Below are positions 19,948 to 34,968 of a stretch of DNA of 64,000 nt, one piece after another. The notes below the pieces were generated by a model. It searched no databases. It was not told the DNA's origin and saw only the letters and a program-made list of their open reading frames with translations. Position 1 is the stretch's first letter, and each line of letters opens with the position of its first letter. Origin of the DNA: Methylophaga nitratireducenticrescens (lineage in GTDB: Bacteria; Pseudomonadota; Gammaproteobacteria; Nitrosococcales; Methylophagaceae); assembly GCF_000260985.4 (NCBI RefSeq), contig NC_017857.3:186001-250000 (forward strand), given 5' to 3'. Both the position numbers and the translations under genes were made by a program.

Positions 19948-19993
19948 TTCTCTCTCGGTTAAGTAAATAAGTTTGGCTCCATTCAGAGCCGTC

Positions 19994-20024
19994 TTATCAA
20001 ACAGACCGGATGAAAATCTTAATC
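19994..20024 (-). promoter_or_regulatory. candidate FecI-type promoter before receptor C
   Basis: The minus-strand stretch GATTAAGATTTTCATCCGG plus the next 12 bases aligns with 28403-28433 before receptor E at 22 of 31 positions, sharing GATT..GATT, CGG and CTGTT.GATA. Conservation at the same place before two receptor genes suggests an ECF sigma promoter. Confidence 0.45.
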
Positions 20025-20082
20025 CCCTCATTTTTGTTGAAATGATTTTTCTGGTAATACTCCACGGTGAGCTCACCCTCTT

Positions 20083-21081
20083 TTAGCCGGGCGATACCGA
20101 GACCCAAAAACGGGTGCGGTAGTTGAGCTTGATAGGTTGGGTCTGAACTAGAAACTGTAATGCCTGATCGGTATTTTTCAAATGAAAAATACCGGAAACC
20201 CGAAGTTCTTTAATTCGTGGGTCGCAATGCACTACTCCATGACGATAACGAGCCAGTTCGGTTAACAAATCCGCCAATCGAATATTCTGACCGGCAATCA
20301 CACCATCGGCCCAGGCATCATCCTCAAAGCCGGAATTTGCTGCTGCTTGCGTTTTATCTACTGTTAACCAACGACGTTCTCCTGCTGGGACTATCAATGA
20401 TTCATTACTGTTGGCCGGATGCAATTCAACAGCACCTTGTTGAACGCTGACTAACGCCCGATCTTGCTCCAGCTTGACCACAAAACGGGTACCCAAAGCT
20501 TGTAGTTTGCCAACAGGCGTTTGCACCCAAAACGGACGTTTATTGGAAAAGGCATCATCAACCCCGGTGGTAATAAGAATTTCTCCACGATGCAGAATAA
20601 TCGTGCGTTGTGTTGGATCGAGTTCCGTGCTGATAGCCGTACCGGTGTTGAGCTGGATGACGCTGCCATCTGCCAGTGTCACCGTTCGTTGCTCACCAAT
20701 TGCAGTACTGGCATCCGCTAACAATCGTTGCCAGGGCGTGTGCTGATGTGCGAGCCAGCCACTCATCGCAAAAACACCGGATAACGACAATAATTTAAGT
20801 GCCTGACGGCGATCCAGATGAAGAGTTTGTCGCGTGGCTTCTACTTTATTCAGCGTCTGTAAGGCCAGCTTTTCCGGTAATGAGGAAAATTCTGCCTGCA
20901 TCAAACGGATACGTTGCCAGGCTTTGGCATGCAGTGGATCAGCGTTTAACCAGGCTTCAAAGGCCTGCTGATTTTGTTCAGAGACGTGATTGTAATTTAG
21001 CTTAACGGCCCAGAGGATGGCATCATCCACAATTGCATCCGGTAAGGACTCACCATTAAGCGTCCCGTTTACATCGGTCAT
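20083..21081 (-). CDS. module C: FecR-like anti-sigma factor/regulator
   Basis: 332 residues: DUF4880 N-terminus (AFEAWLNADPLHAKAWQRI), hydrophobic segment near 95-110, FecR domain with VTLADGSVIQLNTGTAI and ALGTRFVV, and the C-terminal LRVSGIFHLKNTDQALQFL region. It overlaps the stop of the interrupted sigma gene by four bases. The frame is intact although its partner sigma gene is broken, which suggests the sigma mutation is recent. Confidence 0.92.
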   Translation of the reverse strand: MTDVNGTLNGESLPDAIVDDAILWAVKLNYNHVSEQNQQAFEAWLNADPLHAKAWQRIRLMQAEFSSLPEKLALQTLNKVEATRQTLHLDRRQALKLLSLSGVFAMSGWLAHQHTPWQRLLADASTAIGEQRTVTLADGSVIQLNTGTAISTELDPTQRTIILHRGEILITTGVDDAFSNKRPFWVQTPVGKLQALGTRFVVKLEQDRALVSVQQGAVELHPANSNESLIVPAGERRWLTVDKTQAAANSGFEDDAWADGVIAGQNIRLADLLTELARYRHGVVHCDPRIKELRVSGIFHLKNTDQALQFLVQTQPIKLNYRTRFWVSVSPG

Positions 21082-21587
21082 GCTTCATATCTGCATTCAT
21101 AGCAACGACGTAACGCTTTGGCGATATAGCGTTTTACCGTGGCCAATGACACATCGAGTTTTTTGGCAATCTGGGGACAGGTAAATCCTTCCAGTTGAGC
21201 TAACAAAAAGGCTTGGCGAATGGATGGCTTTAACGAATCCAGCACCCGATCAATGGTATTAAGCGTTTCCAAAAACAGCAGTTGGGTTTCTGGTGAGGGA
21301 GCCTCTTCTTCTGGCAGAATGGACAATATTTCTAACCAAGTACGTTCCAGCTCACGGCGACGCCAATGATCAATCACCAGTCCACGGGCAATACTGGAGA
21401 GAAACGCCTTTGGCTATTTGGGCTGTATGGATTGCTGGCGATTAAGCAGCCTGACAAATACATCTTGCGCCAGATCAGCCGCATCAAAGCGATTACCTAA
21501 TTTCGCAAGCAGCCAACTTTGCAACCAATTATGGTGGTCGCTGTACAACGTCAACACGTCCTGTTGTGGATTTATCTGTCTAGCCAA
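21078..21587 (-). pseudogene. module C: FecI-family sigma factor with in-frame amber codon
   Basis: The reading from a TTG at 21587 (AGGA nearby, TAA directly upstream in frame) gives a complete FecI-like sigma factor: LYSDHHNWLQSWLLAKLG, DLAQDVFVRLLNRQQ, then TAG at 21416-21414, then PKAFLSSIARGLVIDHWRRR and a normal sigma-4 region. The paralogues have an ordinary residue at this position (for example EPRAYL or APKAYL), so a single base change made the stop; no frameshift is involved. Restart at the GTG at 21377 would give only the C-terminal 99 residues without sigma-2. Promoter and downstream genes are intact. Confidence 0.88.
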
Positions 21588-21628
21588 CGTTTTTTATCCT
21601 GCTGGGATAAGGGGTAAACTCGCCATAA

Positions 21629-21679
21629 TTGCGAATAGGAATTGTTCGCAATTATATTGACCTCTGCCGGTACATGCAA
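21629..21679 (-). promoter_or_regulatory. module C sigma-gene promoter and palindromic operator
   Basis: On the minus strand TTGCAT (21679-21674), 17 bp, and a perfect TATAAT (21656-21651). A palindrome with arms TTGCGAA and TTCGCAA (21629-21635, 21645-21651) abuts the -10. It is closely related to the module B promoter region but matches the Fur consensus poorly. Confidence 0.75.
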
Positions 21680-21743
21680 ATAAACGGCAGATATCCATCA
21701 GTCAGTTCAGCATCAGACTACAATTTGATAACGGTAAAAATAA

Positions 21744-21778
21744 AAAACCGCCAAGCAATTTTTTGCCTGACGGTTTTT
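21744..21778 (-). terminator. terminator after receptor D
   Basis: AAAAACCGCCAAGCA pairs with TGCCTGACGGTTTTT with two mismatches, followed on the minus strand by a T-rich tail. It lies between receptor D and the module C promoter and separates the two transcripts. Confidence 0.8.
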
Positions 21779-21794
21779 GAGATGAATAAACCGG

Positions 21795-24221
21795 CTACCA
21801 GTTGTAGGTTGCTGTCACGACTGCTGAGCGTTCTACTCCGTAGAAGCAGGCATAAGAGCAGGTGGCATACTCCTTATCAAAGACATTGTTGATATTTAAT
21901 GCCAGCGACCATTCAGGAGTAAGGCTGTAATTCACTACCGCGTCCACCACGGTAAACCCTGGTGCTTCATAGGTGTTTGCAAGATTATAGCTTCTGCCGT
22001 AATAACGTGCCCCAGCCCCTAAGCCAAGACCGGGGACAGTCTCTCTAAACTTATAATCTGCCCATAATGACGCCATATGCCTTGGCACTGCACCAAAGCG
22101 ATTGCCTTCCGTACCACTATTACTCTCGGTGACTGCATTATCGATATAGCCATACGAGGCAATCAGATTCAGGTTATTGGTTAAATTGGCTCTGGCTTCC
22201 AGTTCAAAACCTTTCGATTCCACCTCTCCTTCCTGAATGGAAAAGGCTGTATTATCCAAATCTGTAGTAGTGACGTTTTTCTGGGTCAATTTATAAACAG
22301 AAGCCGTGATGGATAATGCCTGGCCTTCAGGTTGATATCTCAAGCCGATTTCATATTGCTCACCTTCTGTCGGTTGAAAAGCCGAACCGTTGGCATCCTG
22401 ACCACCTGGAGGAGATTCAAATGACTCCGAATAACTTATATAGGGCGCAAGACCATTATCAAACAGATAAACCAAGCCCACCCGACCTGTAAAAGCATCA
22501 TCGTTATAATCTTCGGTAGTTATGTTTGTTAATTTATTTTTTGAATCTGACTCAATTTTATCGTACCGACCTCCGAGCATAACCACCCATTTATCAGCAA
22601 TCTTGATGTGTTCCTGGGCATAAAGACCCAGTTGCTTGCTGTCCTGTTTACCATGGCCTGCTGGAGTATTGTTGAGCGTAACAACTGAACCGTAGACCGG
22701 ATTAAAAAGATTTAGGTCAGCTACGCTGCCGCCGTATTGCACCCGCTCGAAGGACTGTTCTGTATAATCCAGCCCCACCAGTGAGGTATGTTGGCTAGCA
22801 CCCAGATCCCACTTAATTTCCAATTGGTTATCAATGCTCCAGGAGCGGTTCTCATCAGCGCGAGCTGTTGCGCCGCGGGAAACCAATTGTTGACTGGCAT
22901 CCACAGCACCAGCGCCAACATAGTTCCAGTCCGTCTTCCCATCAAAGTGGAGAAAGTTCTGACGAAAAGTCATCTGGTCATTAATATCATGCCTTAGCAA
23001 GTAACCGAGCGTGTGGTTTTGCACGTCATATTTGTCGAAGTCAGGTTCACCAATAAAGCGGTCGCGGTCGATATCGCCATTGATATTATCCAGCACAGTT
23101 CCTTCCGCCGGCAGGCCATAGACAAAGCCAGTTTCATTATTTTGATAGTTGGCAAGTAACGTCAGGCTGGTATCGTCATTAGGTTCCCAGCGCACCGATC
23201 CCTGCACAAATTCACGATCATCGGGAACATAGTCAGTCATGGTATCGCTACGTCTGACAAGTCCTGTCATCCGATATGAGAGGCCGCCATCTTCGGTTAA
23301 TGCCCCGGCAAAGTCCCCTGCCAACTGCTTACGATCAAAACTTCCCGCCTGCACTTTTAACTCACGCAAGGGCTCTGTCTGGGGTTGTTTGGTCACCATA
23401 TTTACAATGCCCCCCGGCGCAGCATTTCCATATAACACTGATGCCGGGCCTTTTAGAATTTCTATTCTTTCCATCGCATAGGGTTCAGAAACGCCGCTGA
23501 AGGTATTTCGTGAAAGCTTAGCTCCATTCAAATACATTGGGGCAGAGCCGGTTACGTTAAAGCCACGAATAATCATCCCATCACTGCTTGTATTATCACC
23601 GCCCATAGGCACCACGCCAGGTGTATATTTCATTACCTGATGCAATGACTCGGCATTTTGAATGGTAATCTGATCCGCTGTCACAATCGACACTGACTGT
23701 GGCGTTTCAATTAATGGAATATCAGCTTTAGTAGCGGTAATACTTTGCTTTGCCACATAACCGCTTACAGGTCCTAACCCCGCCTCAGAATAGGCTGCAG
23801 CCGAAACATTCACTCTGGGCAGTACAACTTCATCAGAAGTTTTTTCTGCCGCTTCAACCCGATAGCTGTTCTGATTAAGTACGATGATTTGCAAAGATTT
23901 ACCGGCCAGTAATTTATTCAGCCCCTGTTCGACAGAGTACTGGCCTGAGAGCGTTTCTGTTTGCTGACCCCGGACTAAGTCTGGATTAAAAGACAGGGTA
24001 ATATCAGCCTGGCTGGCAAACTGGTTCAGTGACTGTGCCAGTGGACCGGCTGGAATTTGAAACGTTTGCTGTTGGGAAACAGTGGCTTCAGCGGCGAGTA
24101 ATGTGGTTAAGGGTAAAGCTGCGGTTACAACAACCGTAGCGATAAGTGCTGCTTTTATTGACTGATTGAGCAGTGTCGGCTTTTTTAAGGCTTTCGCCTG
24201 TATGGGTTGAGCAGAGTTCAT
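21795..24221 (-). CDS. module D: STN-containing TonB-dependent siderophore receptor
   Basis: 808 residues: signal peptide (to about 44), STN domain (about 55-108, FQIPAGPLAQSLNQFASQAD), TonB-box-like LPRVNVSA, plug with LKGPASVLYGNAAPGGIVN, and a barrel ending in Trp. FoxA/FhuE-like, and of the same subgroup as receptor A (shared motifs LIETPQSVSIVTADQI and FEPSEGEQ-type loops). It is transcribed after fecI and fecR D. Confidence 0.92.
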   Translation of the reverse strand: MNSAQPIQAKALKKPTLLNQSIKAALIATVVVTAALPLTTLLAAEATVSQQQTFQIPAGPLAQSLNQFASQADITLSFNPDLVRGQQTETLSGQYSVEQGLNKLLAGKSLQIIVLNQNSYRVEAAEKTSDEVVLPRVNVSAAAYSEAGLGPVSGYVAKQSITATKADIPLIETPQSVSIVTADQITIQNAESLHQVMKYTPGVVPMGGDNTSSDGMIIRGFNVTGSAPMYLNGAKLSRNTFSGVSEPYAMERIEILKGPASVLYGNAAPGGIVNMVTKQPQTEPLRELKVQAGSFDRKQLAGDFAGALTEDGGLSYRMTGLVRRSDTMTDYVPDDREFVQGSVRWEPNDDTSLTLLANYQNNETGFVYGLPAEGTVLDNINGDIDRDRFIGEPDFDKYDVQNHTLGYLLRHDINDQMTFRQNFLHFDGKTDWNYVGAGAVDASQQLVSRGATARADENRSWSIDNQLEIKWDLGASQHTSLVGLDYTEQSFERVQYGGSVADLNLFNPVYGSVVTLNNTPAGHGKQDSKQLGLYAQEHIKIADKWVVMLGGRYDKIESDSKNKLTNITTEDYNDDAFTGRVGLVYLFDNGLAPYISYSESFESPPGGQDANGSAFQPTEGEQYEIGLRYQPEGQALSITASVYKLTQKNVTTTDLDNTAFSIQEGEVESKGFELEARANLTNNLNLIASYGYIDNAVTESNSGTEGNRFGAVPRHMASLWADYKFRETVPGLGLGAGARYYGRSYNLANTYEAPGFTVVDAVVNYSLTPEWSLALNINNVFDKEYATCSYACFYGVERSAVVTATYNW

Positions 24222-24247
24222 GGAGCTTCCTTTTCAGCGTAAATGGT

Positions 24248-24266
24248 GGAAATGAGATTCATTTAC
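24248..24266. promoter_or_regulatory. Fur-like box before receptor D
   Basis: GGAAATGAGATTCATTTAC in the 75-bp gap between fecR D and its receptor resembles the Fur boxes before the sigma genes. It may give the receptor its own iron control. A CTTCGG motif lies just upstream on the minus strand (within 24266-24288). Confidence 0.45.
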
Positions 24267-24296
24267 TACTGATGCCGAAGCAGCTGAAAAAAAGGT

Positions 24297-25262
24297 TCAT
24301 TTATTTTTCGTCACAGTTACCCAATATGGACTGCGATATACCACGCTGACCGGAAAGCTGTGAGCAATGTTGCTGAGAGCAATATCGGTATCACTGAGTT
24401 GAAAAACACCGGATATCCGCAGCTCTGCCACTGCTGGATCACATCTCAACCATCCTCGACGATAACGGGATAACTCGGAAATAACCTCGCCTAAAGGTTG
24501 GTTGTCGACCATCAATTGTTTTTGCGTCCAAGCGGTTGCAATTGATGATGTGCTTGCTGTGACAGGCTCAATTTCCATTTTGGAAAACTGGCTTTGCTGG
24601 CCTGCTGTGATGCGTTGAAGCTTATCCGTCGCAGCCGTATGAATTTCTACTGCATCCTGCTGTACGGCTACCTGAGAATATTCTGAACTTAACCGCACCG
24701 TGAACACCGTTCCCAAAGCATGAATTTGCCCATGTTCTGTTCTGACTGATAAGGGTCGGGCCAATACGTCACTGGCTGTTGTGATCTGGATTTCACCTTG
24801 CAGCAGTTCAATGAGTCGCTGGTTTTCATCAAACAACACATTCACCGCGCTGCGGGTATTCAATATCAGCTTGCAGCCATCTGCCAGCATGACTTCACGT
24901 AATTCTCCGGTCGTCGTCTGATAATCGGCGGTCCAGGATGATATGGGTGAATGTTGATAGACCAGCCAACTCCCGGTTGGAATAACAAGCAATGCGCTGA
25001 TGGCTTTAATAAGGTTACGCCGCTGAGCCTGTTTTCGGCTCAATACAGAAAGACCTAGTTTTTCTGGCACTTGATCAAAGGATTGATTTAATTGTTGAGC
25101 GGCTTGCCAGGCACGTTGATGATCAGCACTTTGCGCACACCATTGCTGTAACTGATTTTGTTCACTTGCAGTTAAAGGTTGTTCCTGTATTTTGACCAGC
25201 CAGTCAGCTGCTTCGGCAATGATTTGTGCTGGCGGGACTTTGGCCTCCATGTCGCTCACCAT
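24297..25262 (-). CDS. module D: FecR-like anti-sigma factor/regulator
   Basis: 321 residues: DUF4880 N-terminus (EAADWLVKIQEQPLTASEQN), a hydrophobic segment near 88-102, FecR domain with VMLADGCKLILNTRSAV and ALGTVFTV, and the C-terminal LRISGVFQLSDTDIALSNI region. It overlaps the sigma gene by seven bases. An internal ATG at 25250 is an alternative start. Confidence 0.92.
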   Translation of the reverse strand: MVSDMEAKVPPAQIIAEAADWLVKIQEQPLTASEQNQLQQWCAQSADHQRAWQAAQQLNQSFDQVPEKLGLSVLSRKQAQRRNLIKAISALLVIPTGSWLVYQHSPISSWTADYQTTTGELREVMLADGCKLILNTRSAVNVLFDENQRLIELLQGEIQITTASDVLARPLSVRTEHGQIHALGTVFTVRLSSEYSQVAVQQDAVEIHTAATDKLQRITAGQQSQFSKMEIEPVTASTSSIATAWTQKQLMVDNQPLGEVISELSRYRRGWLRCDPAVAELRISGVFQLSDTDIALSNIAHSFPVSVVYRSPYWVTVTKNK

Positions 25263-25753
25263 AATAATGTCAGGCAGTGAATAAACGCCTGTTGCATATC
25301 GCGTTTTACCGTACTTAATGAAACGTCGGTCAGTTTAGCAATCTGTGCATATGTCAGCCCTTCCAGCTGCGATAACAGGAAGATGGTTTTGACACGCGCT
25401 GGCAACCGGTTTATCAGAGCGTCCAGCTGCTCCAGAGTTTCACGAATTAACAGCCGTTCTTCTTCCGAAATCATGGTGATTTCCGGCATATTAGCCAAGG
25501 CATTCTGATAGGCATTTTCCAGTGATCGACGACGAAAGTAATCAATCACCAGCCCGTTGGCAACGGTACGCAGATAGGCCCGAGGCTGTTCTGGAGTAAA
25601 GTCTGTTTGTTTGTGTTGAGCCTGCAATAAACGAACAAACGTATCTTGCGCCAGATCCGCGGCACGCTGATCGCAACCAACTTTTTGATATAGCCATCCC
25701 CGAAGCCAATTATGATGGTCTTTATAAATGGTTTCCAATTGTGTTGGAGGCAT
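25256..25753 (-). CDS. module D: FecI-family ECF sigma factor
   Basis: 165 residues. Sigma-2: IYKDHHNWLRGWLYQKVGC and DLAQDTFVRLLQ; linker EQPRAYLRTVANG; sigma-4: FLLSQLEGLTYAQIAKLTDV. Full length for the family. GGAGG is absent before the ATG, so initiation may be moderate. A promoter with a Fur box lies 26 bases upstream. Confidence 0.93.
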   Translation of the reverse strand: MPPTQLETIYKDHHNWLRGWLYQKVGCDQRAADLAQDTFVRLLQAQHKQTDFTPEQPRAYLRTVANGLVIDYFRRRSLENAYQNALANMPEITMISEEERLLIRETLEQLDALINRLPARVKTIFLLSQLEGLTYAQIAKLTDVSLSTVKRDMQQAFIHCLTLLW

Positions 25754-25778
25754 ACGTCGTGGGCAAACTACAGTTAAT

Positions 25779-25818
25779 GAGAATGAGATACATTAACGTC
25801 TTATCAATTAACTGACAA
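25779..25818 (-). promoter_or_regulatory. module D sigma-gene promoter with Fur box
   Basis: Fur box GAGAATGAGATACATTAAC (25779-25797) overlaps a minus-strand -10 TAATGT (25795-25790), with -35 TTGTCA at 25818-25813 and a 17-bp spacer. Confidence 0.7.
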
Positions 25819-25905
25819 GCATAGAAAAACAATACTTATGGATTAAATGAATAAGCCCTGTATCACCATTTTAACCGGGGAAAAAGTGATCCAGGGCCTG
25901 GGCTT

Positions 25906-28353
25906 CTACCATTGGAAAGAGTAAGAAACGCGAAGCATTGCTCCGCGTGCCGGGATGTTGCTGGTGTTCTGCCCGTCACGTAGCAACTGACCGAAAACAG
26001 TCTGGTAGTCATTGTTCAACAGATTCTCAATGCCGACATTCAGTGTTCCCATACGTCCGTTGAGGGTATTAAGCAGATCGACGGTGGTGTAGTTATCGAC
26101 TTCAAGTCGATCAACGCCATCGTCGAAAGCATCATTGCGATGGCCCGAATACAGCGCCTGCAAACGTACATTCCACCACTCGTAAGGACTGTATTGGAGG
26201 TAACCTGTCAGTTTTAATGGCGGGATGCGTAAGCTGTCCAGAGCGAGATCGCTACCGCCACTGGGATTCTCCCGCTCTCCTTTAAGCCAAGTAAATGTGC
26301 CCCCCAGACTCAGCCGATCATTGACGGAATAATCCATCGCTGCTTCCACGCCGTAGATCTGCTCGCGGCTACGATCCTGCGCGACGGAGAAATTCTCGAT
26401 GAATATACGACCTTTATCGGATTCACTATAAAAGCCGGCAAGGCTGGCGCTTAATTTTCGCCCTGTTCCCCGAATACCTATTTCGTAGCTGTCGGTAATG
26501 TTAGGATCCAGATTAGGGTTATCAACATTAAATCCAGCTGGCGCCAGTCGTAATAACAGACCTATATCCGGTAGTTCAAATGCCTGGGAAAAATCGGCAT
26601 AAACATCAATGCTTTCGCTGAGTGTGACGACCGCGCCGAAATTATAGCTGGTTTCTGAATAGTCCAGCTCCCCGCCTTCGATCGAATTACCCTGCCCGAG
26701 AGTGGTGTAATCCGAAAAGCTGACATCCACCCATTCATGACGTACGCCACCACGCAGGATCAGCCAATCGGCCGGGAAAAGTTCGAGCTGTCCAAACACA
26801 CCATAGGATTCGGTCTTAATCTCGGGCACGAACGTGCGTTCTGAATCGGTTACGATAAAATGGGTGCCACCTGAAGAATCAAAGGCATCACCATCAAACA
26901 GGGTGGCCGGTTGAGCAGTTTCCTCATGGTTAAAATCTGCACCCCAGAGCAGCGTGGCATCAACGGGGGCCATATCAAACAGAGGTGTATCAAAGGTCAG
27001 GCGGCCGCCGTAAACCTCGGACTCCAGAAAGGTCTGCGCGAGGTTGTTCCAACTGCCGAAGGGTCGCCCATCGAATGGCGAGAAACGGGTTTCGTAGTCA
27101 CGGTAATAGATTTGAGAATTTAAGGTACTGCCGAACAAATCCTGTTTGCTGTAATCCAGATTCAGAATCAGATTCTGCCGATCAGTCTGATCATCCAGTT
27201 GCAGTCCTTTTAGCGATCGTGCCTGTACATCACCAGGGGGAAAGGCTCTGACCGCCGGATCAGAGATAAAGTCCGTATCCTGTTCGGCATCAAGAAAACT
27301 GGCCGTCAACTGGAGTCGTTGATCACCAAAATCGTAGCCGAGCTTGCCGAGTAAATCCAGACTGTCGGTATCCATCAGGTCACCCTGACTGGGTTCAGGG
27401 GCAATTCTTGCACCATCCGCATCATAAAAGCTTTGCACCCGCTCACCGGAAAACGACAAAAGATAATCCACCGCACCCTGTTTGCCACTGACTTTCTGAT
27501 CCAGTCTCCCCGACAAACTATCTGAGTCAAGTTGCGTCAGACTGCTACCCCCAGACAGGCTGGTCTCAAAGCTTGCCGGTCCCGCTTCGCCCTTGACTGT
27601 ATTGATATGAATGATACCGCCTGCCGCGCCACCGCCATAAACAGAGCTGCCGCCGCGCACCACTTCAATACTCTCGATACTCGATGCAGTGAGATTGAAA
27701 AGATCCCGCGAGACATTTCGGTTGGTGTTCATCGGTACACCGTCAATCAGCACCAGAACCTTTCGCCCCCGCAAAGTTTGTGATGAGTTACTTAAAGTGC
27801 CACTCGACGGGGCCATGCCGGGCACCAGTTTACCGAGTATTTCCGCCACGTTACCCGACATCTCCTGTTGTTGCTTAATGGCTGTTTTGTCGATGGTTGT
27901 CACACTGCGAGAAAGGGTATCCATCGTTCTACCGAATCTGGAAGACGTTACCGTTACTGTCTCCAATTCCACCGACGCTTGCGCCTGCTGTAGCCGCTTA
28001 ACCAGCGTATAGCTGCCATTTTCGAGCTGCTTTGACTGCAAGCCGCTCGCTACCAGCAGCTTGCTGAGCAGCTCTTCGGGCACATAACTACCGGTATATT
28101 CGGCAGCAGTCTGCCCCTTGACGATATCGGGGGTAAAAGAGACCGTGATGCCGCTCTGCACTGAAAACTGGATCAAAGCTGACTCCAGAGATCCTGCAGC
28201 AATAGTAATGCGCTGTTGCTGCAACGCAGTCTGGGCATAAGCAGGCGTTATCATTACACCACCCGTCAGCACTATGTTGCTAACAATGCTTGCTGCCAGT
28301 AAATGGCGATTAAGTGGTTTGAGTTTATTCCAGAAAGCATGTTGTTTTTTCAT
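25906..28353 (-). CDS. module E: STN-containing TonB-dependent receptor
   Basis: 815 residues: signal peptide (to about 40), STN domain (about 48-100), TonB-box-like LETVTVTSS, plug with LVLIDGVPMNT and VVRGGSSVYGGGAAGGIIHI, and a barrel ending in FQW. The plug resembles the colicin I receptor/FepA/vitamin B12-type group more than FoxA, so its ligand class probably differs from A, C and D. Catecholates or another metal chelate are possible; sequence alone does not decide. Confidence 0.9.
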   Translation of the reverse strand: MKKQHAFWNKLKPLNRHLLAASIVSNIVLTGGVMITPAYAQTALQQQRITIAAGSLESALIQFSVQSGITVSFTPDIVKGQTAAEYTGSYVPEELLSKLLVASGLQSKQLENGSYTLVKRLQQAQASVELETVTVTSSRFGRTMDTLSRSVTTIDKTAIKQQQEMSGNVAEILGKLVPGMAPSSGTLSNSSQTLRGRKVLVLIDGVPMNTNRNVSRDLFNLTASSIESIEVVRGGSSVYGGGAAGGIIHINTVKGEAGPASFETSLSGGSSLTQLDSDSLSGRLDQKVSGKQGAVDYLLSFSGERVQSFYDADGARIAPEPSQGDLMDTDSLDLLGKLGYDFGDQRLQLTASFLDAEQDTDFISDPAVRAFPPGDVQARSLKGLQLDDQTDRQNLILNLDYSKQDLFGSTLNSQIYYRDYETRFSPFDGRPFGSWNNLAQTFLESEVYGGRLTFDTPLFDMAPVDATLLWGADFNHEETAQPATLFDGDAFDSSGGTHFIVTDSERTFVPEIKTESYGVFGQLELFPADWLILRGGVRHEWVDVSFSDYTTLGQGNSIEGGELDYSETSYNFGAVVTLSESIDVYADFSQAFELPDIGLLLRLAPAGFNVDNPNLDPNITDSYEIGIRGTGRKLSASLAGFYSESDKGRIFIENFSVAQDRSREQIYGVEAAMDYSVNDRLSLGGTFTWLKGERENPSGGSDLALDSLRIPPLKLTGYLQYSPYEWWNVRLQALYSGHRNDAFDDGVDRLEVDNYTTVDLLNTLNGRMGTLNVGIENLLNNDYQTVFGQLLRDGQNTSNIPARGAMLRVSYSFQW

Positions 28354-28402
28354 TCCATTTCCTGTTTTTTCGATTAAGTTGCTACGTTGATTTACAACGT
28401 TT

Positions 28403-28433
28403 CTATCTAACAGGCCGAATAGGAATCAAAATC
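28403..28433 (-). promoter_or_regulatory. candidate FecI-type promoter before receptor E
   Basis: Minus-strand GATTTTGATTCCTATTCGG plus 12 further bases matches the stretch before receptor C at 22 of 31 positions. It lies 50 bp before the receptor start in a 334-bp gap (28354-28687). The rest of the gap holds nothing else that I recognise. Confidence 0.45.
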
Positions 28434-28687
28434 AACAACACTTAATTTTAGTTTTTTTACAAAAGCTACCTCAAAAGCAGTTCACAGATTGGGTTGAAGA
28501 ATGCCTCCCAAGATCATTAACCACAGCTACGAGTAACAATATTTATCAACAAATTATGCCGATTCAATTGAAAAAACTGTTTCGGCTTATCTCCATTCAA
28601 ATGGGCTCCATAGCCAACTTTCTATAAGTCATGCTACTTTTCTTAATCTGCGAAATCTGCGGATGATAGGAATTGCAAAGACCGCTG

Positions 28688-29629
28688 TTAAGCAGGCTCC
28701 ACTCTGGCCCAGAAACGCGTGAAATAGTGGATTCTGACCGGCAGGGTACCGCTGAGATTTTCCAGAACAGCACGTGTATCGTTGAGGTGGAATGAGCCCG
28801 AAATTCGATAAGCTGAAACAGCAGGATCGTAATCCAATACGCCCTTGTGATAACGACTTAGCTCTTTAATAAAACGATCCAAACGCCAGTTGCTGACTAT
28901 TAACAAACCTTGCGTCCAGGCAGCGGCCGTATCTGGCAACGCTCGGACATCACCATAACGATCAAAGGTAAAGCCGGCCTGCTGGCCGCTTTGCAGTCTG
29001 ATAGGTTTGGCAAGCATTTTTTCCGGCATGATCTCAACAGCATGCTCAAATACGCCTACCTGGGTTTTATCATCGTCGCAGTGGATCTGAAAACGCGTTC
29101 CCAATGCCCGGATTTGTCCATGCCGGGTTCGCACAATAAATGGCCGGGCCTGTTTATCCTCACTTGTGGCGATCTGTATTTCACCATAGTGGAGCGTTAA
29201 TTCGCGTATTGCATTATCATAATTAACATCAAAAGCCGTGTTGGTATTGAGGTTGACTAAACTGCCATCAGCCAAAAAAATATCGCGTTGTTGACCAACT
29301 CTCGTCCGATAATCTGCCACAAAGCCATAAACTGTTGTTTTTTTTGTCCATGCGGTTCCAACACCACCGACCATCAACATTAGCGTAAGAACCTTAATCA
29401 TTTCCCTTCGAGAGCGTCGCACGTTATCCATCGTTCCGGTACGGATTTCACCGGGAAGCCTGTCCATTGTTTTTTGTAGTTTTTCGACTCGTTGCCAAGC
29501 CTTCTGATGCAGAGGATTTGATTCCAACCATCTTGTATGGGCTTCATGCAGAGAGTCATCTGAATTAGCGGAGTTTAAATCCAAATACCACGTCACCGCT
29601 TCTTCCAGAATTTCAGCATTAATTTCCAT
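28688..29629 (-). CDS. module E: FecR-like anti-sigma factor/regulator
   Basis: 313 residues: DUF4880 N-terminus (EEAVTWYLDLNSANSDD), hydrophobic segment near 75-92, FecR domain with IFLADGSLVNLNTNTAF and ALGTRFQI, and the C-terminal YRISGSFHLNDTRAVLENL region. Starts 13 bases after the sigma gene. The most divergent of the five FecR proteins here by eye. Confidence 0.92.
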   Translation of the reverse strand: MEINAEILEEAVTWYLDLNSANSDDSLHEAHTRWLESNPLHQKAWQRVEKLQKTMDRLPGEIRTGTMDNVRRSRREMIKVLTLMLMVGGVGTAWTKKTTVYGFVADYRTRVGQQRDIFLADGSLVNLNTNTAFDVNYDNAIRELTLHYGEIQIATSEDKQARPFIVRTRHGQIRALGTRFQIHCDDDKTQVGVFEHAVEIMPEKMLAKPIRLQSGQQAGFTFDRYGDVRALPDTAAAWTQGLLIVSNWRLDRFIKELSRYHKGVLDYDPAVSAYRISGSFHLNDTRAVLENLSGTLPVRIHYFTRFWARVEPA

Positions 29630-29642
29630 TGATTAAAACCAG

Positions 29643-30134
29643 TTAATCCTCGATCATCAATAAACATTGCGTCATAGCACGGATAAAATGCTTTCGCACA
29701 GTATTGACTGAAATTCCAAGCCGACGACCAATCTCAGTATAAGAAAGCCCATCAAGCTGAGCCATTAAAAAAATCTGCCTGCTCCGTTCACTCAAACTGT
29801 CGAGCATACGGTCAATTTCCAGTAAGGTTTCAATAATACTGTGGCGTGTTTCAGCTGAGATATCATTTTGTTCGGGTTGTTCTTTCAGTGCATCCAGATA
29901 AGCTTGTTCGACACTACGCCGACGAAATAGATCTATTAAAAGCCCGCGGGCAACACTGCTAAGATAAGCTTTGGGTGCACGCAACTCGATAGCACGCTCC
30001 TGAATTAACACCTTGATAAAAGTCTCTTGCGTCAAGTCACTGGCCTGATCTGCGCAATCCAGTCTCTTTCTAATCCAGTGCCAAAGCCAATTGTGATGTG
30101 TTTTGTAAAGGGCCTCAAAATGTGAATGAGACAT
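29643..30134 (-). CDS. module E: FecI-family ECF sigma factor
   Basis: 163 residues. Sigma-2: LYKTHHNWLWHWIRKRLDC and DLTQETFIKVL; linker RAPKAYLSSVARG; sigma-4: FLMAQLDGLSYTEIGRRLGI. Complete. The best matching promoter is about 400 bp upstream, unlike modules A and D where it lies directly before the gene. Confidence 0.93.
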   Translation of the reverse strand: MSHSHFEALYKTHHNWLWHWIRKRLDCADQASDLTQETFIKVLIQERAIELRAPKAYLSSVARGLLIDLFRRRSVEQAYLDALKEQPEQNDISAETRHSIIETLLEIDRMLDSLSERSRQIFLMAQLDGLSYTEIGRRLGISVNTVRKHFIRAMTQCLLMIED

Positions 30135-30623: not shown

Positions 30624-31079
30624 TCATGAATGCCCGGTTGCCGCTAGCTTAGCGGCAATATAGTCACGGTGTTCGACGTATAACAAGTTACTGATACGGC
30701 GAATAACATGCTGCTCTATTTGATGGATTTCCTGATCAGCATTGGCTAATTGCCAGAGGATATGGATCAATTCAATTTTCTTTTTCTGGCTGTAACGACG
30801 ATTGATTTCCGAGGTAAAGGCAAAATAATCTGTAGCAGATTTGTGTGCGTGTTCAGCTTCAGTGAGCAGACTTTCTGCCACATCTTTATCAAGTGAAAAA
30901 CGTTTCTGCAAAATGGATAGCAACGTGTCCCGCTCTTCATCTTTAAAATGATAATCAGCAGCAATGACTTCTATCATTAACGCAGCGGCTGCAAGCTTCA
31001 CGGATAAATGTGCAGCATCACCGGAATCGTTATCGTCAAGCAATTCTCGCTGTAAAAGTTGTTTGAGTTTATCGAGCAT
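30624..31079 (-). CDS. TerB-like protein
   Basis: 151 residues, all helical, with the acidic TerB/DjlA-N signature (VIAADYHFKDEERDTLLSIL and ADQEIHQIEQHVIRRISNLL). TerB-type domains bind metal and are linked to tellurite resistance and stress responses, but this stand-alone form is uncharacterised. It lies 52 bases after the GNAT-C39 gene on the same strand and could be the last gene of that unit. Confidence 0.8.
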   Translation of the reverse strand: MLDKLKQLLQRELLDDNDSGDAAHLSVKLAAAALMIEVIAADYHFKDEERDTLLSILQKRFSLDKDVAESLLTEAEHAHKSATDYFAFTSEINRRYSQKKKIELIHILWQLANADQEIHQIEQHVIRRISNLLYVEHRDYIAAKLAATGHS

Positions 31080-31131: not shown

Positions 31132-32262
31132 TTATTTTGTCGAGTGTAAAATCACAGCCGCCTGATAACGGGGTTTTCCATAACCTAACATGCGATTGAA
31201 CTCTTTATGAGTCACCGGAACGTAGAAGCTGTCGGTGAGGGTTTTGTCATCATCCCAATCAATATCCGGATCATGAAAATAGACAAAGGTATCTGAAATC
31301 GATACCAGCACCACCCAATGCGGTGATTTGTTCTGATTGAGCCGGTATGAGCTAATTAACACTACTGCCAGTGCACCCTGGTTCAGATAGTCACGCAGTA
31401 AATTCACATCGATTTGCCGCATCTGCTGCTCGACTTCCGAGGTTTCCAGCTGTCGCATAAAGTCCTGATGCACACATTCCATCACCGCTTTTTTATCTTC
31501 ACTACGTACACCGTTCACAAACGGCACATCATTACTATTGGTGATTAAGGTAGTGTTGAAATAACGTCGCCATGCCGCCAGAGCCAGACCCTGCGCGCTA
31601 CAGCCACCGTGTCCGGAAGTCATAAATATGGTGGTAGCTTCACGCCATAACTGTAATTCCAGCCCCCGATCCAGATGCATGACCGGTTGCAGCGTTTTCA
31701 TTGCCATCATCAAACTGGCTGGGCCACAGGTAAAATCGGTGCTTTGTGAATAATGAAATACCTGCTGATGCAGTTCTTCCGGTTGCGGTTGCAACACCTT
31801 CATCATACGTAGGGCGTTGGCATGATCCTCGTAGTAGTCAGTGACGATTTCGAACTGGTGATAGCCTAGACTTTCATAAAGTTTTATCGCACCAGCATTA
31901 TCGGGCCGTACTTCCAGTCGAATAAAACTGCGGCCTGCTGTCAATGCCGCCTGCTCGGCTTCACGCATCAAAGCCCGGGCAATTTTCTGATTACGATATT
32001 CAGGTAATACCGCCAGCGAATAGATGCGTCCCAGCGAAGTGCCCCGGGCATATAGCAACAGCACATAGCCCATCAATTTTTGTTGCTGCTCGGCGACCAG
32101 TAATAACGCGTTGGCCTTGTTGATCATCCATTTAAAACTGCGGCGGGAGAGGTGATCGCTGTCAAAACAGATATTTTCGATAGCCAGCAGCGCATCTACA
32201 TCGGCCAACGTGGCTGCACGAAAGGTTATTGGATCAACCTGTTGATTAACTGCCTGTTGCAT
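31132..32262 (-). CDS. GNAT acetyltransferase fused to C39-like cysteine peptidase
   Basis: 376 residues. Residues 10-155 are a GNAT domain with the acetyl-CoA motif RNQKIA after IYSLAVLPEY. Residues 165-376 are a C39-like papain-fold domain with Cys179 in FTCGPASL, His315 in PHWVVLV and Asp331 in FHDPD. Such fusions occur beside RimK-type ATP-grasp genes in other proteobacteria and are predicted to modify or trim peptides or proteins; none I know of is biochemically resolved. It overlaps the upstream peptidase gene by 17 bases, so the two are co-transcribed. There is no signal peptide, so it acts in the cytoplasm. Confidence 0.88.
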   Translation of the reverse strand: MQQAVNQQVDPITFRAATLADVDALLAIENICFDSDHLSRRSFKWMINKANALLLVAEQQQKLMGYVLLLYARGTSLGRIYSLAVLPEYRNQKIARALMREAEQAALTAGRSFIRLEVRPDNAGAIKLYESLGYHQFEIVTDYYEDHANALRMMKVLQPQPEELHQQVFHYSQSTDFTCGPASLMMAMKTLQPVMHLDRGLELQLWREATTIFMTSGHGGCSAQGLALAAWRRYFNTTLITNSNDVPFVNGVRSEDKKAVMECVHQDFMRQLETSEVEQQMRQIDVNLLRDYLNQGALAVVLISSYRLNQNKSPHWVVLVSISDTFVYFHDPDIDWDDDKTLTDSFYVPVTHKEFNRMLGYGKPRYQAAVILHSTK

Positions 32263-33316
32263 TAGTGGTCAAACCCTCCAGGGCCATTTCGATGACCTGG
32301 CGCCCGCGGAACAATACCAGCTCTTGCCATTGAGTTTCATCAGGACAGAAAAAATCCTGCATTGCGTGTTTAATATCCAGCGTTTTCTGGTCGGACCAAT
32401 CGATTTTGCCGGATTGTTGTAACTGTTGATCTGCAAACAGCACTTTAAGCATTTGTTGATTGCTAAAAGTACCGAATTCCAATGTCAGAAAACACACGTT
32501 ACTCCCTTGCTGATGCCAGAAATAATCGTGCAAACCGTACTTAACACCAGAAGTAGACGTACCCAGCGCCGGTTCGGTCACTGTCGGGCCAAATAATTGC
32601 CGCGCTTTTTTTTGACCGGCAGTTTCAGGAAGATGATCACAGATTAATTCGCCATATCCATAAGGTCCGAGTCCACTATGAATATCTATAACAATAACGT
32701 TATCGCGTTTTTCTGGTTTCAGTTGTGCGACCAGCTCTTCAATGGTTTGACGTGACCAGCTGGCTTGTTCACCACCAAAATAAAGCGCATCGGCTTTGCT
32801 GTATTGGCCCTGGCTGAGCTTATCAAACTGCTCTCGCTGCTCCCCAATCATATCCACTGCGTCCTTTTGCTTACTGAGCTTTTCCCATATCGCTATCGCA
32901 TCAGCAGAGTCTGGAAGCTTAGCCGTAAAATCAACAAAGTTACGGTTGATATCGATGCCTTCATGGTCATTTCGGCTGGCACAGGCAAATCCCCAGGGAT
33001 TTAACGCATGCACCATAACAACACACACATCGGCGGGTAACCGTCGGTGACGTCCCACAAAATCAGATTGAATTGCTGAGCCTACTCCCCCCTCAACACC
33101 ATGAACGCCAGAAACCAGTACCAGAATATTTTTTGCCTTGGGGCTGCCAGCCCAGGCAATATCACAAAACAAACGTTCGTTTTTTGGCCCGCGAAGCGGG
33201 TGAATAATATTGTTGACCCGTTCTACAATGGAGCTTGTTTCCACTGCTGATATGAACTTGTCACGTGCACCAGCATAGCGCTGAGAAAACACACTCAGAA
33301 CGGCTTCTGCATACAT
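32246..33316 (-). CDS. M14-like metallopeptidase (DUF2817)
   Basis: 356 residues with the zinc site of M14-type carboxypeptidases: His72 and Glu75 in VHGVEGG, His213 in DIHSGLG, and catalytic Glu278 in LTLEFGT. The NRNF motif (124-127) fits substrate-carboxylate binding. There is no signal peptide, so it is cytoplasmic. Context (RimK-like ligase opposite, GNAT-C39 fusion downstream) suggests it removes C-terminal residues added by the ligase or processes their peptide products. That role is inferred. Confidence 0.87.
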   Translation of the reverse strand: MYAEAVLSVFSQRYAGARDKFISAVETSSIVERVNNIIHPLRGPKNERLFCDIAWAGSPKAKNILVLVSGVHGVEGGVGSAIQSDFVGRHRRLPADVCVVMVHALNPWGFACASRNDHEGIDINRNFVDFTAKLPDSADAIAIWEKLSKQKDAVDMIGEQREQFDKLSQGQYSKADALYFGGEQASWSRQTIEELVAQLKPEKRDNVIVIDIHSGLGPYGYGELICDHLPETAGQKKARQLFGPTVTEPALGTSTSGVKYGLHDYFWHQQGSNVCFLTLEFGTFSNQQMLKVLFADQQLQQSGKIDWSDQKTLDIKHAMQDFFCPDETQWQELVLFRGRQVIEMALEGLTTNATGS

Positions 33317-33483
33317 GGCAACAACTCTCCTGTAGATGAAAATTCGGCGAAGAATAGGCGACTTTTATGATTTTGACCAGATAATCAGCATAGTGGCAAA
33401 AATATTTATCTCAACCATGACACAATCACTTTATGATGCACAAATCGTCTGACTAATCTGATTCGGAGCAACGCTAAAGTCAT

Positions 33484-34968
33484 ATGACTAACCATTTGAT
33501 AATTCTTGAAAATATCGAAGACTGGGCACCTTACTTCCCCAGCGCGCAGGTCATCGCAGTGGATGATTATCTGCAAACCCCTTCCCCCAGTGCGAGTGAG
33601 CGTGCGCAAATTATTAACCTCTGTCACGGTCTTGAATATTTAAGCCCCGGCTATTACTGCTCCATGGTCGCTGAAGCACGAGGCCATCGGGTGATGCCGA
33701 GTTTGCGCACCATTAATGACTTATCCCGTAAAAGTCTTTATGCCTACGATTTATCGGATTTCGGAACCCAGCTGGATAAAGTCATTGCGGCCAGTGATAA
33801 ACAATCTGAAACCAGTTTCAAGCTGAAAGTCTTTTTTGGGCAATGTGAATTTAAAGGCCTGCAGAAGCTGGCAAGACAGATTTTTGAACAGTATCCCTGC
33901 CCAATCATCGAAATCGAGTTCAGCCATAAAGGTCACTGGTTAATCTCTGCTATCAAGGCTGCTCCGCTTAATCAGCTCAGCGACAGTGAGCAGGACAACT
34001 TCGCCAATGCTTTGGATGCATTCAGTCATAAGTTATGGCGCAAACCTTCTAAGCGTCGCCAATACCGATATGACATGGCCATTCTGCATAACCCTGATGA
34101 AAAAATGCCACCCAGTGATGCCACCGCATTAAAACGCTTTATCGCCAGTGGTAAACGTATCGGTATTGATGTCGAACTGATCACGCCGCGAGACTATATC
34201 CGTATTGCTGAATATGACGCTTTATTTATCCGTGAAACCACGGCGATACATAATCACACCTATAAATTTGCCCGCCGCGCTGAAAGCGAAGGTTTGGTCG
34301 TTATTGATGATCCGACTTCAATCATTCGCTGCACCAACAAGATCTATCTGAAAGAACTCTTGGAAAAGCATAATTTGCCGATGCCGGAATCACATTTGCT
34401 CTATCGCAATGATAAAACCGGTCTGGAAAAAATCTGTGCTGAAGCGACTTTCCCTTTGGTAATGAAGATTCCTGATGGCGCTTTTTCCAAAGGGGTTATC
34501 AAGGTCAACAATGCCGAAGAACTGCGTAGCAATGCAGCAGAGTTTTTCCAGCAATCGGCGATAATCCTGTTGCAGGAATTTATGTTTACCGATTATGACT
34601 GGCGTATTGGCGTGTTTAATAACAAACCAATTTATGCCTGCCAGTATTTTATGAGTAAAGGTCATTGGCAGATTTATAACCACAACACCAAAAAAGGCAC
34701 GGACTCAGGTAAATCAGCAGCGGTGCCGATTTCTGAAGTTCCGGAAAAAGTACTGAAAATCGCTGTAAAATCGGCTAAATTGGTTGGAGATGGTCTTTAT
34801 GGCATCGATATCAAACAAAGTGGTAGCCGGGTGGTGTTAATTGAAATCAACGATAACCCCAGTATCGACAGCGGCGTGGAAGATGCTTATCTAGGACCTG
34901 CTTTATACGACGATATAATGCGTGAATTTTTGCGAAGACTGGAAGCTCGCAAATCCCATCGTCAATAA
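33484..34968 (+). CDS. RimK-family ATP-grasp ligase with RLAN domain
   Basis: 494 residues. The N-terminal third (about 1-150, with HGLEYLSPGYYCSMVAEARGH) is the RimK-like ATP-grasp N-terminal (RLAN) domain. The rest is an ATP-grasp fold with PLVMKIPDGAFSKGVIKV for nucleotide binding and VVLIEINDNPSIDSGVED for metal binding. RimK enzymes add amino acids such as glutamate to protein C-termini or make short peptides. It diverges from the M14-GNAT-C39 pair across 167 bp, a set seen together in other bacteria. The substrate is unknown. Confidence 0.9.
   Translation: MTNHLIILENIEDWAPYFPSAQVIAVDDYLQTPSPSASERAQIINLCHGLEYLSPGYYCSMVAEARGHRVMPSLRTINDLSRKSLYAYDLSDFGTQLDKVIAASDKQSETSFKLKVFFGQCEFKGLQKLARQIFEQYPCPIIEIEFSHKGHWLISAIKAAPLNQLSDSEQDNFANALDAFSHKLWRKPSKRRQYRYDMAILHNPDEKMPPSDATALKRFIASGKRIGIDVELITPRDYIRIAEYDALFIRETTAIHNHTYKFARRAESEGLVVIDDPTSIIRCTNKIYLKELLEKHNLPMPESHLLYRNDKTGLEKICAEATFPLVMKIPDGAFSKGVIKVNNAEELRSNAAEFFQQSAIILLQEFMFTDYDWRIGVFNNKPIYACQYFMSKGHWQIYNHNTKKGTDSGKSAAVPISEVPEKVLKIAVKSAKLVGDGLYGIDIKQSGSRVVLIEINDNPSIDSGVEDAYLGPALYDDIMREFLRRLEARKSHRQ

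What the first reader, a model, noticed from the sequence alone, without database searches (positions are those of the whole stretch)
31132..34968. GNAT-C39 peptidase fusion, M14-like peptidase and RimK-like ligase: a possible peptide-tagging module
A ligase that can add residues to protein ends faces two genes with peptidase domains and an acetyltransferase. All catalytic residues are visible. Similar associations have been predicted as protein or peptide modification systems, but I know of no resolved biochemistry. The TerB-like gene could be an added part.
Basis: partly seen in the sequence, partly recalled or inferred. Interest (0 to 1): 0.6.

Follow-up and report, generated by a model that had tools for sequence, protein, structure and literature searches.

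The report
Conserved peptide ligase–acetyltransferase–peptidase module
Next to each other in this methanol-using marine bacterium lie genes for an enzyme that joins amino acids, an acetyltransferase fused to a peptide-cutting enzyme, and a second peptide-cutting enzyme; the core pair is conserved in many bacteria and probably makes and recycles a small capped peptide, but nobody has shown what the product is.

Summary
In a Methylophaga genome, an RLAN-RimK ATP-grasp ligase (33484-34968 +) diverges from a DUF2817/M14-fold peptidase (32246-33316 -) and a GNAT-C39 (DUF3335) fusion (31132-32262 -); those two genes overlap by 17 bp. It is not chance: 57 of 58 phylum genomes with DUF3335 also have RLAN (p 1e-53), and a GNAT lies within 5 kb of the ligase in 140 of 144 informative loci. 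The ligase plus GNAT is the invariant core (one fusion found); C39 is usual, M14 recurrent, TerB confined to Methylophaga relatives. A DUF155/RMND1-family gene, absent here, is a recurrent partner elsewhere; I found no report of that link. Protein tagging is not shown. The same genome carries a canonical RimK-RimB pair elsewhere, so ribosomal protein S6 already has its ligase. The best reading is a cytoplasmic N-acetylated small peptide, made by ligase and GNAT and trimmed or recycled by C39 and M14. This resembles the NAGGN osmolyte system, whose genes sit beside the module in one genome. The RLAN/GNAT-papain core was predicted as a peptide system in 2009 (recalled, paper not held); the M14 and RMND1 extensions are the fresher part. 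Substrate and product remain unknown.

The parts
33484..34968 (+). RLAN-RimK ATP-grasp ligase, 494 aa: RLAN domain about 1-190, pre-ATP-grasp and ATP-grasp about 195-490
   Evidence: Pfam RLAN 3.2e-52 and RimK 1.2e-10; AlphaFold model pLDDT 83.7 matches RimK (5zk6, E 1.2e-16) and ArgX (3vpb) over the C-terminal part; invariant K286, K328, R374, D442, E454, N456
32246..33316 (-). DUF2817 M14-fold zinc peptidase, 356 aa
   Evidence: PF10994 5.9e-79; model pLDDT 89.4, Foldseek to carboxypeptidase A 3.9e-8, with aspartoacylase/desuccinylase-type and cyanophycin-dipeptide hydrolase entries further down; H72, E75, N124-R125, H213, E280 invariant
31132..32262 (-). GNAT-C39 fusion, 376 aa: RimI-like N-acetyltransferase about 10-155, DUF3335 papain-like peptidase about 168-373
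   Evidence: PF11814 4.6e-84, PF00583 3.5e-19; TIGR01575 rimI 80.5 bits, cut-off 86.4; Q173/C179/H315/D331; overlaps the M14 gene by 17 bp
33317..33483 (.). 167-bp divergent intergenic region between the M14 gene and the ligase; presumed to hold both promoters
   Evidence: ORF coordinates; promoter scan not above shuffles
30624..31079 (-). TerB-domain gene, 151 aa, 52 bp downstream of GNAT-C39 on the same strand; optional Methylophaga add-on
   Evidence: PF05099 8.9e-34; near the module only in Methylophaga relatives, absent or displaced by an insert in several of them

Best explanation
A cytoplasmic non-ribosomal peptide module. The RLAN-RimK ligase uses ATP to join an amino acid to the carboxylate of an amino acid or short peptide. 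The RimI-like GNAT acetylates the alpha-amino end, giving an N-acetylated short peptide. The C39 domain and the M14 carboxypeptidase-type enzyme cut it back, for turnover or to set its length. The logic is that of the NAGGN osmolyte system (GNAT plus ATP-grasp plus peptidase) with different ligase and peptidase families. Shown: the genes, domains, intact catalytic residues (except the GNAT loop), conserved association, and the ligase-GNAT core. Inferred: reaction, order of steps, acidic (Glu-type) substrate, direction of the peptidases.
For: Ligase plus GNAT is the invariant core: GNAT within 5 kb in 140 of 144 informative RLAN loci, also in lineages with no C39 anywhere in the genome. GNAT and ligase are one polypeptide in L086, the same GNAT-then-ATP-grasp order as N-acetylglutaminylglutamine synthetase. 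DUF3335 almost never occurs without RLAN (57 of 58). In G006 the GNAT-C39-M14-DUF155 run lies beside the NAGGN synthetase (781 bits) and NAGGN M42 peptidase (614 bits). In L112 the operon is C39-RLAN-GCS2-N-formylglutamate amidohydrolase; ArgE/ArgA flank the module in f89 and ArgE in f37. The M14 structural neighbours include N-acyl-acidic-amino-acid and isopeptide-dipeptide hydrolases. The genome has its own RimK-RimB pair. No gap in the module is longer than 167 bp, leaving little room for a precursor peptide gene.
Against: No product or substrate is known. NAGGN, ArgA/ArgE and GCS2/FGase contexts are one or two families each and could be chance neighbours. The GNAT is closest to RimI, a protein N-acetyltransferase, and the ligase to RimK, a protein ligase. 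The RMND1-family link suggests translation. The substrate-loop motif of canonical RimK (RSNxxxGG) is replaced by HWQI, so a glutamate substrate is only a guess. The window's GNAT loop is atypical.
Confidence: 0.45

Rival explanations
1. Protein-modifying module: the RLAN-RimK ligase extends the C-terminus or a side chain of a protein, perhaps a ribosomal or ribosome-bound one; the GNAT caps an N-terminus; C39 and M14 remove the extension, as RimB does for RimK; the RMND1-family protein anchors the system to ribosomes where present.
For: RimK- and RimI-like enzymes; RimK-RpsF is the top structural match; DUF155/RMND1 gene within 5 kb in at least six lineages, and RMND1 is proposed to tether mitochondrial ribosomes (PMC7564844); canonical RimK sits next to the module in L187.
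Against: No constant protein partner in the neighbourhoods; S6 already has RimK-RimB in this genome, and S6 here ends in AAKA; DUF155 is absent from the window genome; the GNAT-ligase fusion fits sequential action on one small substrate better.
Confidence: 0.3
2. Scavenging or recycling of N-acylated or modified peptides, or stress detoxification: the peptidases act first on imported or damaged peptides and the ligase and GNAT re-form or inactivate the fragments.
For: Two peptidases in one overlapping pair; M14 fold includes deacylases and dipeptide hydrolases; TonB receptor and FecI-FecR genes flank the module.
Against: The ligase and GNAT persist without any C39 in whole lineages, so peptidase-first order is not the conserved part; the TonB/Fec neighbours are specific to Methylophaga.
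Confidence: 0.12
3. RiPP-type pathway: the ligase installs bonds in a ribosomal precursor and the C39 domain removes a leader peptide.
For: C39 peptidases and ATP-grasp ligases are common in RiPP clusters (PMC8939145).
Against: No precursor gene fits in the gaps of 52, -17 and 167 bp; no ABC exporter; the C39 domain is fused to a GNAT, not a transporter.
Confidence: 0.05

Closest known systems
RLAN-RimK / GNAT-papain-like peptidase systems (predicted peptide synthesis; Iyer et al. 2009, PMC3268129, not held, recalled from memory)
   Same: RLAN fused to RimK-like ATP-grasp next to a GNAT fused to a papain-like peptidase; DUF3335-GNAT fusion is also noted in PMC10318531
   Different: Here an M14-fold DUF2817 gene sits between them, overlapping the C39 gene, with a TerB gene behind; relatives add an RMND1-family gene
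NAGGN osmolyte trio (N-acetylglutaminylglutamine synthetase TIGR03103, M42 hydrolase TIGR03106, amidotransferase)
   Same: GNAT plus ATP-grasp plus peptidase logic; one GNAT-ligase fusion in L086; loci adjacent in G006
   Different: Different ATP-grasp family (RimK-type with RLAN), C39 and M14 in place of M42, no amidotransferase; no TIGR03103 match above cut-off
RimK-RimB ribosomal S6 glutamylation pair
   Same: RimK-type ATP-grasp fold and a ligase with a counteracting-type protease nearby
   Different: No RimK N-terminal domain, RLAN instead; retropepsin RimB replaced by C39 and M14; substrate loop differs; the true pair is elsewhere in the genome
Rlo operon of Pseudomonas aeruginosa (PMC12239564)
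   Same: RimK-like ATP-grasp protein with a protease of unknown substrate
   Different: Retropepsin-like secreted proteases and an inactive transglutaminase membrane protein; none of these here

Membership tests
RLAN-RimK / GNAT-papain predicted peptide system | RLAN domain fused to a RimK-like ATP-grasp domain | tested here: met
   PF14401 3.2e-52 and PF08443 1.2e-10 in 33484-34968
RLAN-RimK / GNAT-papain predicted peptide system | Neighbouring GNAT fused to a papain-like peptidase | tested here: met
   PF00583 plus PF11814 in 31132-32262, triad intact
RLAN-RimK / GNAT-papain predicted peptide system | Makes a peptide | not testable with these tools
   Needs biochemistry or metabolomics
RimK-RimB S6 modification | RimK pre-ATP-grasp domain (PF18030) and score above RimK/S6-ligase cut-offs | tested here: not met
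   No Rimk_N match; TIGR00768 91.8 below 143.4, PRK10446 36.8 below 331
RimK-RimB S6 modification | Adjacent RimB retropepsin | tested here: not met
   Not in the neighbourhood; a RimB-like gene and RimK are at L218 (RimB named by reading the translation, no family search run on it)
NAGGN synthesis | N-acetylglutaminylglutamine synthetase TIGR03103 above cut-off | tested here: not met
   25 bits against 569, GNAT part only
NAGGN synthesis | Amidotransferase and M42 peptidase partners | tested here: not met
   The genes either side of the module are ECF sigma/FecR, TerB, TonB receptor and DnaJ
M14 carboxypeptidase superfamily (DUF2817 gene) | HxxE...H zinc ligands, NR substrate pair, catalytic Glu, M14 fold | tested here: met
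   H72, E75, N124-R125, H213, E280; Foldseek to carboxypeptidase A 3.9e-8
M14 carboxypeptidase superfamily (DUF2817 gene) | Carboxypeptidase rather than deacylase activity | not testable with these tools
   Structural matches include both types
C39/papain-like peptidase (DUF3335) | Gln-Cys-His-Asp catalytic set | tested here: met
   Q173, C179, H315, D331
RimI N-alpha-acetyltransferase | Equivalog score above cut-off | tested here: not met
   TIGR01575 80.5 bits against 86.4
RiPP biosynthesis | Precursor peptide gene and exporter | tested here: inconclusive
   No room in the gaps and no exporter seen; small ORFs elsewhere not searched

The most novel reading that the evidence does not exclude
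A second, RimK-RimB-independent tagging system in which an RLAN-RimK ligase, a RimI-like acetyltransferase and two peptidases reversibly modify a ribosome-associated protein, with an RMND1-family protein as the ribosome anchor in many lineages; it would give a bacterial functional setting for the RMND1/DUF155 family.
Probability: 0.12. Interest if true: 0.8.

Novelty: new variant of a known kind. Interest (0 to 1): 0.42.

Why it matters
RLAN is found in 72 of 399 sampled genomes of the phylum, in pseudomonads, xanthomonads, methylotrophs and others, and I found no paper in the library giving the module a product. Finding the product would add either a new class of N-acetylated peptide metabolite or a new protein tag. 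The neighbourhood survey narrows the problem: ligase plus GNAT is the minimal unit to test, the xanthomonad version lacks the peptidases, and the link to an RMND1-family gene may help explain a protein family whose human member causes mitochondrial disease.

Tried and rejected
TerB as a core part: rejected, limited to Methylophaga relatives. S6 as the target: made unlikely by the separate RimB-RimK operon. NAGGN membership: rejected on family scores. RiPP: no room for a precursor. Flanking TonB/FecI/FecR and DnaJ genes as parts: conserved only within the genus. Promoter and terminator scans were no better than shuffles. Iyer et al. 2009 could not be read, and literature searches for functional work on the RLAN/GNAT-C39 genes found none. 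Paired-branch test of M14 against DUF155 on the ligase tree had too few pairs for significance. Ca/Na antiporter neighbours (cluster c10) seen in three families but treated as generic.

Full report
1. What is there. The window is from a Methylophaga genome: the nearest named record is Methylophaga sp. EAC20, 99% identical in the ligase, and the window is G000:C1:186001-250000 of a 3.135-Mb contig. The ORFs end exactly as stated. Minus strand: M14-like DUF2817 gene 32246-33316, then GNAT-C39 31132-32262, overlapping it by 17 bp, then a TerB gene 30624-31079 after 52 bp. Plus strand: RLAN-RimK 33484-34968, divergent, 167 bp away. Pfam assignments are strong.

2. Catalytic integrity. C39: Gln173, Cys179 and His315 are invariant in 24 relatives, and Asp331 is Asp in 21 and Glu in 3. 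M14: His72, Glu75, Asn124-Arg125, His213 and Glu280 are invariant in 13 relatives. Ligase: the ATP-grasp lysines and metal ligands are invariant in 25. GNAT: E29, D36, R79, Y81, S82, E117 and Y144 are invariant in 32, but the acetyl-CoA loop has Lys93 where most relatives have Gly, so GNAT activity in this species is slightly less certain. The GNAT scores just below the RimI cut-off, consistent with an alpha-amino acetyltransferase of the RimI kind.

3. Structures. The ligase model (pLDDT 83.7) matches RimK, including the RimK-RpsF complex (E 1.2e-16), and ArgX/LysX over the C-terminal 300 residues; the RLAN part has no sequence match in the PDB. Compared with the genome's own RimK, the substrate loop RSNxxxGG is replaced by an invariant HWQI. 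The M14 model (pLDDT 89.4) matches carboxypeptidase A (E 3.9e-8) and also aspartoacylase/succinylglutamate desuccinylase-type proteins and the cyanophycin dipeptide hydrolase CphZ. The closest PDB sequence is REP34 (E 0.0056), and MpaA appears weakly.

4. Gene-neighbourhood survey. In 399 genomes drawn from the phylum, RLAN is in 72, DUF3335 in 58, full-length DUF2817 in 51 and DUF155 in 39. DUF3335 occurs without RLAN in one genome only (Fisher p about 1e-53); 15 RLAN genomes have no DUF3335. DUF2817 and DUF155 are enriched in RLAN genomes (p 6e-9 and 8e-8), and still after removal of family f40 (p 0.001 and 0.01); these p-values ignore relatedness. RLAN is in all 22 sampled genomes of the genus besides the window's own.

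5. Physical linkage. Mapping of about 150 loci shows a GNAT within 5 kb of RLAN in 140 of 144 informative loci. C39 is fused to it in most, but in xanthomonads, some pseudomonads and others the GNAT stands alone. In L086 the GNAT is fused to the ligase itself. The arrangement GNAT-C39, M14, ligase seen in the window recurs in HdN1 (L149), Methylobacter (L195), Methylomonas (L197) and three unnamed gammaproteobacterial genomes (L167, L182, L192), and with other orders in Methylomicrobium (L189) and families f40 and f41. On the ligase tree, M14 linkage changes state at least 8 times and DUF155 linkage at least 8 times, so neither is a single inherited accident; gain cannot be told from loss. TerB is limited to Methylophaga relatives.

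6. An unexpected partner. A DUF155 (RMND1/Sif2-Sif3/Mrx10) gene lies by the module in most f40 loci, HdN1, L182, L189, L092, L095, L112 and, beside GNAT-C39 and M14, in G006. Human RMND1 is an inner-membrane protein needed for mitochondrial translation and proposed to tether mitoribosomes (PMC7564844). The window genome has no DUF155. I found no report of this link, but the search was limited to the held library.

7. Hints on chemistry. G006 carries the NAGGN synthetase and its M42 peptidase just upstream of GNAT-C39, M14 and DUF155. L112 has C39, RLAN-RimK, GCS2 and N-formylglutamate amidohydrolase as one overlapping run, with DUF155 beside it. ArgE/ArgA flank the module in f89 and ArgE in f37. 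Each is one or two cases and could be chance, but all concern glutamate or N-acyl amino acids.

8. Tagging or free peptide. The genome has a canonical RimB-RimK operon and another RimK-like ligase in what looks like a tetrahydromethanopterin context (both read from the translations), so the RLAN ligase probably acts on something else. S6 here ends in AAKA. The GNAT-ligase core and fusion, absence of a constant protein partner, and the NAGGN-like logic favour a small N-acetyl peptide; the RimI/RimK resemblance and RMND1 link favour a protein. I put the free peptide at 0.45 and a protein target at 0.30.

9. Relation to what is known. From memory, Iyer et al. 2009 (PMC3268129; not held) and the Pfam text for RLAN describe RLAN-RimK next to GNAT-papain fusions with a predicted role in peptide synthesis. 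PMC10318531 notes that DUF3335 is often fused to GNAT domains. So the core is a predicted, untested system; the window is a member with a recurrent M14 extension. It is not RimK-RimB and not NAGGN by the tests above.

Noticed in passing
L149, L182, L189, L092, L095, L112, L198 and most family f40 loci (e.g. L204, L214): A DUF155/RMND1-family gene is a recurrent neighbour of the RLAN/GNAT-C39/M14 genes across at least six lineages; no report of this link found.
   Followed up: partly
L198 (G006:C1:240000-255000): NAGGN synthetase and NAGGN-system M42 peptidase genes lie directly upstream of GNAT-C39, M14 and DUF155, while this genome's RLAN gene is about 2.1 Mb away.
   Followed up: yes
L112:7888-12831: Overlapping run of C39-type peptidase, RLAN-RimK, GCS2 and N-formylglutamate amidohydrolase, with DUF155 on the other strand.
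   Followed up: yes
L187:4236-8464: A canonical RimK gene sits two genes away from the RLAN-RimK ligase in Marinobacterium rhizophilum, with the GNAT-C39 gene between them.
   Followed up: partly
L201 and L202 (G197, G274): Extra DUF3335 proteins in which no GNAT was recognised, away from RLAN, in family f52 genomes; their N-terminal parts may be highly divergent GNATs.
   Followed up: no
window 17518-30134: Several neighbouring large ORFs of about 800-850 aa alternating with smaller genes; the last set is FecI-FecR-like, suggesting tandem FecI-FecR-receptor sets.
   Followed up: no
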